This document shows, one piece after another, positions 7,669 through 36,867 of a stretch of DNA of 64,000 bases. The notes beneath the pieces were generated by a model. It saw only the letters and a program-made list of their open reading frames with translations. It searched no databases and was not told the origin of the DNA. Source of the DNA: Desulfurococcales archaeon (GTDB lineage: Archaea; Thermoproteota; Thermoprotei_A; Sulfolobales; Acidilobaceae); NCBI GenBank assembly GCA_015521705.1, contig WANR01000031.1:1-64000 (forward strand), read 5' to 3'. Numbering within the stretch: the stretch's first letter is position 1; every line of letters starts with the position of its first letter. The translations under genes were made by a program, and so were the position numbers.

Positions 7669-8002
7669 GGGACCGGCCGCGGCTGGCGGCCGACGGCCCC
7701 TAAAGGGGCTGAGGAAACACCGCCCTCCCCGCGGGAGCCGGGCCCCGGAAGGGGCACGGGTGATACCCGTGGCAATGGCACAGAAACGGCACGGCTCCAG
7801 GCGATGTCTATGATGCGGAGAGGTCCCCGAGGCAACTCGGGGGCAGGTAACCCGTTGAGGACAGCCTGGAGACGCGTTGAAACGGCCAGCCCCGGCGGAG
7901 CAAGGTCCTGGGGCTATGAGGCCCGCGCGAAGCCCTGGGAGGAGGCCGCTGAGTCAAATGCCGCCGTAGTACCGAAGGCGGGTTATAGCCGCGGCCGGCC
8001 CC
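7669..8002 (+). ncRNA. rnpB: RNase P RNA (archaeal)
   Basis: The catalytic RNA of RNase P, which removes tRNA 5' leaders. The ends pair as a long P1 helix: the 5' arm starts GGGACCGGCCGCGGCT and the 3' arm is AGCCGCGGCCGGCCCC. Conserved blocks are in order: GAGGAAAC near the 5' end, ACAGAAAC in the middle, GGAGCAAGG, and AGTACCGAAGGCGGGTTATA before the 3' arm of P1. The length of about 334 nt is normal. The 3' end touches the start codon of the next gene. Confidence 0.95.
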
Positions 8003-11576: not shown

Positions 11577-11945
11577 ACCTAGCTGTGGGCTCCTTTAAAG
11601 TGCTACTTAGGGCCTGTCCGCGTGTCTAGAGGGCTGATGGGCTGATCGTTGAAACTACGGGGCAGGCATTCCTATGGCTGGTAAAGTTATTAAGCGTTGC
11701 CGTGCTTAGGCTAGAATAATTGGCGATGACTGGCGCTCGAGAGGTCCGACGCGCTTTAATGATGGGGAATAACGGGTCTGAGTAGCCGCTTCCCTTAAGC
11801 CTTTCGCCAAGACGGTTTGTCTAAGTCAGTGTTTTACTGGCGGGAATTATTGCTTTTAAATTCTCGGAAGCATCCATGTTTTAAATGAGCAAGTAGAAGC
11901 CTCTTTGAAGGCTTAATGATACGTAGGCTAGGGAGGTGCTAGAAG
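11577..11945. other. Gene-free stretch before dnaG
   Basis: These 369 bases hold no credible protein gene. They contain a C/D-box sRNA candidate (about 11716-11786) with its own TATA-like GTTATTAAG (11686-11694), and dnaG promoter candidates CTTTTAAAT (11853-11861) and TTTTAAATG (11879-11887). Confidence 0.5.
11716..11786 (+). ncRNA. Candidate C/D-box sRNA
   Basis: Archaeal C/D sRNAs guide 2'-O-methylation. Boxes seen: C GCGATGA (11723-11729), C' ATGATGG (11759-11765), then exactly 12 bases of guide (GGAATAACGGGT) and a perfect D box CTGA (11778-11781). The upstream D' is poor (CCGA at 11746-11749, spacing 16). GGC before and GCC after could form the terminal stem. A TATA-like sequence lies about 25-30 bases before the proposed 5' end. 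Target unknown. Confidence 0.45.
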
Positions 11946-35264: not shown

Positions 35265-35504
35265 TCAAGCCCCCTCCTCTCCCTTCCTATAGTAGGCCTT
35301 GGCCAGGAGCCAGGTTCTCAGGAGCGTTATAGAGGCTGATAGAAGCGCTAGCCCTATAACTGCAGCCATTAGACTGGCCGCTACTCTCGGGGGATCCTCT
35401 GTTATGAGTATGAAACTATTGTTCAAAAAATAGAGTGAAACCATGAGCAATAGGATCGACACCAATAAGCCTACATCAGGCCTAAGCTTGCCCCTAAACG
35501 ACAA
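35265..35504 (-). CDS. Small two-helix membrane protein
   Basis: A 79-residue protein with two membrane helices: VGLLVSILLLMVSLYFL (about 11-27) and VAASLMAAVIGLALLSASIT (about 41-60). A charged tail KAYYRKGEEGA follows. The TTG start at 35504 has GGAGATGG about 10 bases upstream. No family is recognised. PadR regulators often control adjacent small membrane or transporter genes, and the next gene on this strand is a PadR. Confidence 0.6.
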   Translation of the reverse strand: MSFRGKLRPDVGLLVSILLLMVSLYFLNNSFILITEDPPRVAASLMAAVIGLALLSASITLLRTWLLAKAYYRKGEEGA

Positions 35505-35629
35505 CTTGTACCATCTCCTAGACCATCTATAAGGGCAACTATTCTGCCAGTCCTCTTTAGCCTGCCTCTATCCAGGATCCTTGTGCTAGAGGAAATAAAA
35601 ATAATTGGTGATGGGAGCTATAATTCCTG

Positions 35630-35695
35630 GATAACCGATGATGCGGTCTGCCGCTCCTGAAGCAGTATGAAGAGCGAACTCCTGGCTGAGGCGGG
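35630..35695 (+). ncRNA. Candidate C/D-box sRNA with two perfect CUGA boxes
   Basis: Boxes in order: C ATGATGC (35638-35644), 12-base guide GGTCTGCCGCTC, D' CTGA (35657-35660), six-base spacer, C' ATGAAGA (35667-35673), 12-base guide GCGAACTCCTGG, D CTGA (35686-35689). CCG before C and CGG after D can form the terminal stem. A TATA-like AAATAAAAAT (35593-35602) lies about 30 bases before the proposed 5' end. A further module just upstream (GTGATGG, 12 bases, CTGG) also fits. The 301-base gap 35505-35805 holds nothing else. Confidence 0.6.
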
Positions 35696-35805: not shown

Positions 35806-36867
35806 TCATGGCATCACGTCTGGATCGTATTCGTCGTATTCGCCGGGAAGTTCTGGCTCTGGGGTTTTTAAGCCTAGAGGACACCCTTTGCCTAGTCTTA
35901 TGGGTTCTGGTATTCTGCTTAGTAGGACGACTCTGCTGGTTTTGCTCTCGCCTATAATGGGGTATCCTGTTAGTTCTGAGAGTCGCTCAGTGAATCTTTT
36001 GACCTCGTAGTGCTTAGCCATGTTTGTTTTGGAGAGTCTTTCACGGCTAGCCCCTACCCACATGTAGGATTTGACCTCAACGTAGGTGGGTTCTGCTAGT
36101 TCTACTAGCTTGGCAAATCCTCTAACGGCTTCCTCGTGGTCGTTGAATCCTCTTACTAGGGTTATCCTGATTACCGTGGGGCTCGAGAAGCTGGGCATCA
36201 ACTCCAGAGTCTCGTATGTGAGCTCCCAGGCCCGTGGCACTAGTGGCCTGGTAAAGTAGTTATAGCTCTTCTTGTCCCAAGCCTCCAGGCTGACATAGAG
36301 CTGGCTAGGCTCTTCGTCGAGGCCGGCTAGCACGTCCGGCCTAACCCCCCTAGTTACGAGGAAGGTCGTCATTCCCCTCCTGTGGACCTCCTTTATTAGA
36401 TCGCCAAGCATCTCGTAAAGCGTGGGTTCTCCCGTCAGACTCATTGTCACATGGACAGGCTTCATGGCCTCCTCGACCATTTTGGGGTCTACCTTGGGGT
36501 GGCCTTTGTAGCCGCTCATAAGCTTTACATGAACCTTGATCATCTCGTCCACGAGAAGTCTGGGATCGTCGAAGAACGGCATCTTGGTCTCGTCCAGCTC
36601 GACGCCTACATCCTCAGGCCTTATCCTCCAGCAGTGAAGGCAGGCGTTCCAACACCAGAAGGCGGCGGGGCTCATTTGTATGTCTCTATGGCTTTCTATG
36701 CCGTAGAACTTGCACTTGTAGCAGTGCCTGCCCTCCACTAGGGCTTTATGGGTCCAGTAACACTTTTTGACGACTGTATGCCTTCCCACGAAGTGGTACT
36801 TCTGCTTTATCATTACCTGGTAGAGTGGGTAGTACTTGTCGGGTATGCCTTCAGGCAACCTGATCAT
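35806..36867 (-). CDS. taw1: 4-demethylwyosine synthase Taw1 (TYW1)
   Basis: A 353-residue radical SAM enzyme that makes the tricyclic base 4-demethylwyosine at G37 of tRNA-Phe from N1-methylguanosine and pyruvate. The radical SAM cluster is in CWNACLHC (CxxxCxxC). An N-terminal second cluster is likely bound by cysteines in KKCYWTH and RHCYKCKF. Other matches are SLTGEPTLYEML, VTRGVRPDVL, SLEAWDKKSYNYFTRPL and EVKSYMWVGAS. The length is normal for archaeal Taw1. Confidence 0.96.
   Translation of the reverse strand: MIRLPEGIPDKYYPLYQVMIKQKYHFVGRHTVVKKCYWTHKALVEGRHCYKCKFYGIESHRDIQMSPAAFWCWNACLHCWRIRPEDVGVELDETKMPFFDDPRLLVDEMIKVHVKLMSGYKGHPKVDPKMVEEAMKPVHVTMSLTGEPTLYEMLGDLIKEVHRRGMTTFLVTRGVRPDVLAGLDEEPSQLYVSLEAWDKKSYNYFTRPLVPRAWELTYETLELMPSFSSPTVIRITLVRGFNDHEEAVRGFAKLVELAEPTYVEVKSYMWVGASRERLSKTNMAKHYEVKRFTERLSELTGYPIIGESKTSRVVLLSRIPEPIRLGKGCPLGLKTPEPELPGEYDEYDPDVMP

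What the first reader, a model, noticed from the sequence alone, without database searches (positions are those of the whole stretch)
35608..35689. C/D-box sRNA candidate with three consecutive modules, each with an exact 12-base guide
Three box pairs occur in series: GTGATGG-12-CTGG, ATGATGC-12-CTGA and ATGAAGA-12-CTGA, with 7- and 6-base spacers. Archaeal C/D sRNAs normally have two modules with 12-base guides. The last two modules with the TATA-like AAATAAAAAT at 35593 form a textbook sRNA. The extra upstream module may be chance, a relic, or a longer triple-guide RNA.
Basis: partly seen in the sequence, partly recalled or inferred. Interest (0 to 1): 0.62.

Follow-up and report, generated by a model that had tools for sequence, protein, structure and literature searches.

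The report
Ordinary archaeal C/D-box methylation guide RNA

Summary
The three box pairs are in the sequence exactly as described. The last two modules (35638-35689) form a canonical archaeal C/D-box sRNA. The double module occurs once in 64 kb and never in 40 simulated windows. Rfam C/D-sRNA models match 35634-35691 end to end, below their curated cut-offs (best sR1, 24.3 bits, E 1.5e-4). A homologue sits in another genus of the family beside the homologous 79-aa gene. Two more, with a degenerate D box, lie at the 5' end of a gene whose homologue flanks the second copy.

The upstream module (35608-35630) is absent from all three homologues, has D box CTGG, no better-than-chance target, and its C box lies upstream of the start site implied by the A-rich promoter element. 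A triple-guide RNA is not supported.

Targets: the D' guide fits tRNA better than shuffled guides. In the homologue it matches the D-arm of tRNA-Tyr and tRNA-Thr(CGU), predicted at G18; in the window it pairs best with pre-tRNA-Trp, predicted at G26. The D guide has no significant target; this assembly lacks 16S, most of 23S and tRNA-Tyr. New member of a known kind.

The parts
35634..35691 (+). Box C/D sRNA, probable mature extent (ends approximate)
   Evidence: Full-length sub-threshold matches to Rfam C/D sRNA models; homologues in three other genomes
35638..35644 (+). Box C, ATGATGC
   Evidence: Sequence; GTGATGC in G011
35645..35656 (+). D' guide GGTCTGCCGCTC; probable tRNA target
   Evidence: 9-nt core TCTGCCGCT identical in G011; tRNA pairing against shuffled guides P=0.009-0.036 for the G011 guide and 0.019 (12 nt) or 0.19 (10-nt core) for the window guide
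35657..35660 (+). Box D', CTGA
   Evidence: Sequence; CCGT or CCGA in homologues
35667..35673 (+). Box C', ATGAAGA
   Evidence: Sequence; GTGAGGA in homologues
35674..35685 (+). D guide GCGAACTCCTGG; target unresolved
   Evidence: 11 of 12 identical in G011; no rRNA or tRNA pairing better than shuffled guides
35686..35689 (+). Box D, CTGA
   Evidence: Sequence; identical in G011, degenerate in L296 and L298
35593..35605 (+). A-rich TATA-like element, likely promoter of the sRNA
   Evidence: Sequence; spacing inference only, no transcript data
35608..35630 (+). Upstream look-alike module (GTGATGG-12-CTGG); judged not part of the sRNA
   Evidence: Absent in G011, L296 and L298; no target

Best explanation
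35634-35691 (+) encodes an archaeal box C/D sRNA of about 55-60 nt with two guide modules (C-guide-D', C'-guide-D). From knowledge of the family, L7Ae binds the C/D and C'/D' kink-turns and recruits Nop5 and fibrillarin, which 2'-O-methylates the target nucleotide paired with the fifth guide base upstream of D or D'. The D' guide most likely acts on tRNA: G18 in the D-loop of tRNA-Tyr/Thr in the homologue, and in the window species either that site or G26 of tRNA-Trp/Lys. The D guide is either an orphan or acts on rRNA missing from this assembly. The upstream third module is not transcribed as part of it. Shown: box anatomy, conservation in other genera, absence of module 1 in homologues. Inferred: protein partners, targets, transcript ends. 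The stated confidence is for the two-module sRNA; for a tRNA target it is about 0.45, and lower for any one nucleotide.
For: Exact boxes and 12-nt guides. Double module seen once, none in 40 simulated windows. Rfam sR1, snoPyro_CD and sR10 match 35634-35691/2 end to end. Homologue in another genus with both guides and the C and D boxes kept and the D'-C' spacer diverged, beside the homologous 79-aa gene. Two further homologous loci, at the 5' end of a gene whose homologue flanks the G011 copy. D' guide pairs with tRNAs better than shuffled guides. Precedent: S. acidocaldarius sRNA-guided methylation at tRNA-Gln G18 and U34 (PMC7668247); tRNA-directed sRNAs often carry one guide without a target (PMC7994747).
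Against: All Rfam scores are below gathering cut-offs. No transcript data. Found in few genomes by strict patterns. L296 and L298 have no CTGA D box and may also be read as coding. The predicted tRNA site differs between the window species (G26) and G011 (G18), and no target could be fixed for the D guide.
Confidence: 0.87

Rival explanations
1. A triple-guide C/D RNA (35608-35689), or two overlapping sRNAs sharing the middle module, all three guides being used.
For: The third box pair is at the right spacing; RTGATGN-12-CTGR modules are rare by chance (0.375 expected per window).
Against: Module 1 is absent from three homologues. Its D box is CTGG. Its guide has no target better than shuffles. 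Its C box lies upstream of the start site implied by the A-rich element (inference).
Confidence: 0.03
2. A canonical C/D sRNA whose two guides both act on this species' own rRNA (double guide), at sites not seen because its 16S and most of its 23S are missing from the assembly; the tRNA matches are incidental.
For: Many archaeal C/D sRNAs are rRNA double guides (PMC4644070). The D guide has a candidate 23S site in relatives with one constant mismatch.
Against: In relatives' rRNA neither guide scores better than its shuffles and the D' guide finds nothing near the D-guide candidate site.
Confidence: 0.3
3. Chance arrangement of box-like words, not a gene.
For: No transcript evidence; no Rfam match above cut-off.
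Against: None in 40 simulations; guides and boxes conserved in another genus beside a shared gene.
Confidence: 0.04

Closest known systems
Archaeal box C/D sRNAs (Rfam sR1 RF01152, snoPyro_CD RF00095, sR10 RF01149)
   Same: Box order C-D'-C'-D, 12-nt guides, total length, end-to-end alignment at 35634-35691
   Different: Guide sequences differ and scores are below each family's cut-off, so it is a different guide family of the same class
S. acidocaldarius C/D sRNA for tRNA-Gln(UUG) G18 and U34 (described in PMC7668247)
   Same: Guide complementary to a tRNA D-arm, with predicted site G18 in the homologue
   Different: Different tRNAs (Tyr, Thr; possibly Trp/Lys at G26 in the window species); no U34 guide seen; not tested experimentally

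Membership tests
Archaeal box C/D sRNA | Boxes C (RTGATGA-like), D', C', D (CTGA) in order, on one strand | tested here: met
   ATGATGC, CTGA, ATGAAGA, CTGA
Archaeal box C/D sRNA | Guides of about 10-12 nt between C and D' and between C' and D; total about 50-65 nt | tested here: met
   Two 12-nt guides, 52 nt from box C to box D; range from PMC7994747
Archaeal box C/D sRNA | Conserved boxes and guides in relatives | tested here: met
   G011 homologue; degenerate copies L296, L298
Archaeal box C/D sRNA | Guide complementary to rRNA or tRNA across the fifth base upstream of D or D' | tested here: inconclusive
   D' guide fits tRNAs (P 0.009-0.036 in G011, 0.019-0.19 in the window), D guide unresolved; own rRNA mostly missing
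Archaeal box C/D sRNA | Expressed and bound by L7Ae, Nop5 and fibrillarin | not testable with these tools
   Needs RNA and protein experiments
Rfam sR1 family (RF01152) | Score above the gathering cut-off (45 bits) | tested here: not met
   24.3 bits
Triple-guide C/D RNA | Third module conserved with the other two | tested here: not met
   Absent in all three homologues

The most novel reading that the evidence does not exclude
The D' guide directs 2'-O-methylation of G26 in tRNA-Trp and tRNA-Lys (12/12 pairing with two or three G-U). That would make it a guide for the ribose methyl of N2,N2,2'-O-trimethylguanosine-26, whose ribose methyltransferase was listed as unknown in a 2018 review (PMC6313347).
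Probability: 0.12. Interest if true: 0.5.

Novelty: new member of a known kind. Interest (0 to 1): 0.22.

Why it matters
It adds an unannotated C/D-guide gene to a little-studied family of heat-loving archaea and gives a concrete, checkable tRNA methylation prediction (G18, or G26 in the window species). If G26 were right, it would point to how hyperthermophiles make a tRNA modification whose ribose methyltransferase was listed as unknown. Otherwise it is an ordinary guide RNA.

Tried and rejected
Rfam at gathering cut-off: only RNase P RNA and a tRNA. First rRNA scans mixed in antisense strands, because genome-search loci are not reoriented; dropped and redone in sense orientation. The 23S site GGGAGTTCAC as D-guide target: rejected, because of a near-invariant mismatch and incompatibility with the G011 guide. 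Initiator tRNA as D-guide target: its D-loop does not match. RNase P RNA as target: at most 10 of 12 paired. Patterns for D-guide relatives: nothing beyond the two genomes. Most of the 43 pattern hits are bacterial and probably chance; the Thermoplasmata hit L294 lacks the flanking boxes. The Pyrobaculum sRNA paper (10.1093/nar/gky284) is not held.

Full report
What is there. The three box pairs are exactly as described, at the stated coordinates and spacings. They lie on the + strand between a 79-aa membrane-like protein gene (35265-35504, minus; no Pfam match) and a wyosine-forming radical-SAM protein gene (35806-36867, minus; Pfam Wyosine_form). No ORF of 60 aa or more is listed across the element. 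The host is an archaeon: an archaeal RNase P RNA lies at 7674-7997. It belongs to the same family as G011, whose contig has the same length as, and the same sRNA sequence as, JALWEI010000036, titled Acidilobaceae archaeon.

More than chance. In first-order Markov simulations of the window (both strands), the double module 35638-35689 was never seen in 40 replicates and is seen once in the real sequence. Single modules RTGATGN-12-CTGA are expected 0.2 times per 64 kb and RTGATGN-12-CTGR 0.375 times. Rfam C/D models align end to end with 35634-35691 (sR1 24.3 bits, E 1.5e-4; snoPyro_CD 23.6 bits, to 35692; sR10 20.6 bits), all below their gathering scores. These matches cover modules 2 and 3 and leave module 1 out.

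Conservation. BLAST of the region against 40 relatives found a homologue in G011, another genus of the same family: GTGATGC-C-GCTCTGCCGCTA-CCGT-spacer-GTGAGGA-C-GCGAACCCCTGG-CTGA. Guides and the C and D boxes are kept while the D'-C' spacer diverges. The homologous 79-aa gene is adjacent in both genomes, on opposite sides. A scan of one genome per species gave two more archaeal hits, L296 and L298: ATGACGA or ATGACAG, then GCTCTGCCGCTC, CCGA, spacer, GTGAGGA, GCGAACTCCCAA. The cores TCTGCCGCT and GCGAAC were part of that search pattern, so their presence there is by construction. What argues for homology is the neighbourhood: the element sits at the 5' end of a 214-aa gene whose homologue (43-44% identity) flanks the G011 sRNA. 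In L296 and L298 the element can also be read as the start of that gene. Identical codons there are somewhat in excess (19 of 20 same-amino-acid codons, against 103 of 146 in the rest of the gene), which is only modest evidence for an RNA constraint. These two lack a CTGA D box but have a possible closing stem GAGAGCG/CGCTCTC (seen by eye; not the predicted minimum-energy fold). Strict patterns found no other copies among 98 and 117 relatives.

The upstream module. None of the three homologues has it. Its D box is CTGG. Its guide pairs with nothing better than shuffled guides do. The A-rich element 35593-35605, at normal archaeal TATA-to-start spacing (about 26 nt, general knowledge), puts the start site at about 35624-35630, so its C box would lie upstream of the transcript. 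I regard it as chance or a relic.

Targets. This assembly has no 16S rRNA found, only the 3' end of 23S and no recognisable tRNA-Tyr, so target prediction is handicapped. Against sense-strand rRNA of relatives, no guide scored clearly better than its own shuffles (P 0.09-0.64 for guides of modules 2 and 3). Against tRNAs the D' guide does better. In G011 its 10-nt core matches the D-arm of tRNA-Tyr and tRNA-Thr(CGU) exactly, P=0.009 (0.036 with all 12 nt). The fifth-base rule then gives G18. In the window species the guide pairs 12/12 (two G-U) with pre-tRNA-Trp and 12/12 (three G-U) with tRNA-Lys, which gives G26, P=0.019 (0.19 with the 10-nt core). The naming of tRNA-Trp, tRNA-Lys and tRNA-Thr(CGU) is my own reading of intron-containing genes that ARAGORN partly mislabels. 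The D-arm of most relatives' tRNA-Tyr reads AGCGGCAGAGC, so the G18 reading may hold in the window species too, with one mismatch inside the core. Guided methylation at tRNA G18 has a precedent in Sulfolobus acidocaldarius (PMC7668247), and tRNA-directed sRNAs often have one guide without a target (PMC7994747). The ribose methyltransferase for m2,2Gm26 was listed as unknown in PMC6313347. The D guide's best rRNA candidate is the 23S site TCAGCCGGGGGTTAGC of relatives, with one constant mismatch; not significant.

Verdict. A standard two-guide archaeal C/D-box sRNA, new as an individual but of a known kind. The triple-guide reading is not supported. Confidence that it is a C/D sRNA is about 0.87, and that the D' guide acts on tRNA about 0.45.

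Noticed in passing
L234 (G000:C3:361-380, minus); also L231, L232, L233, L236, L238, L239: The initiator tRNA-Met gene looks split: the 5' half runs to the anticodon loop (...GCTCATA) and is followed by unrelated GC-rich sequence, with no 3' half in the 120 bases read, while other relatives (e.g. L235, L237, L216, L228) have an intact gene. It may be a trans-spliced split tRNA.
   Followed up: partly
window 11700-11785, +: A second, weaker C/D-like element in the intergenic region upstream of a 405-aa gene: CGATGAC ... CCGA ... ATGATGG-12-CTGA. No Rfam match up to E=1 and no convincing rRNA target.
   Followed up: partly
L301:5027-5700, L296, L298: The sRNA-like element is inverted relative to the neighbouring 208-214-aa gene in G011 compared with L296/L298, where it lies in the same sense at the gene's 5' end.
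   Followed up: partly
L123 (G000:C25:67928-68019) and L171 (G011): A probable tRNA-Trp gene appears to carry an 18-nt intron at an unusual place in the anticodon stem (between about positions 30 and 31), which ARAGORN mislabels as Ser or Cys.
   Followed up: no
G000:C54:1-1564 and relatives' 23S genes: The 23S matches of many relatives are interrupted at the same places (query about 2216 and about 2821-2833), which suggests shared rRNA intron sites.
   Followed up: no
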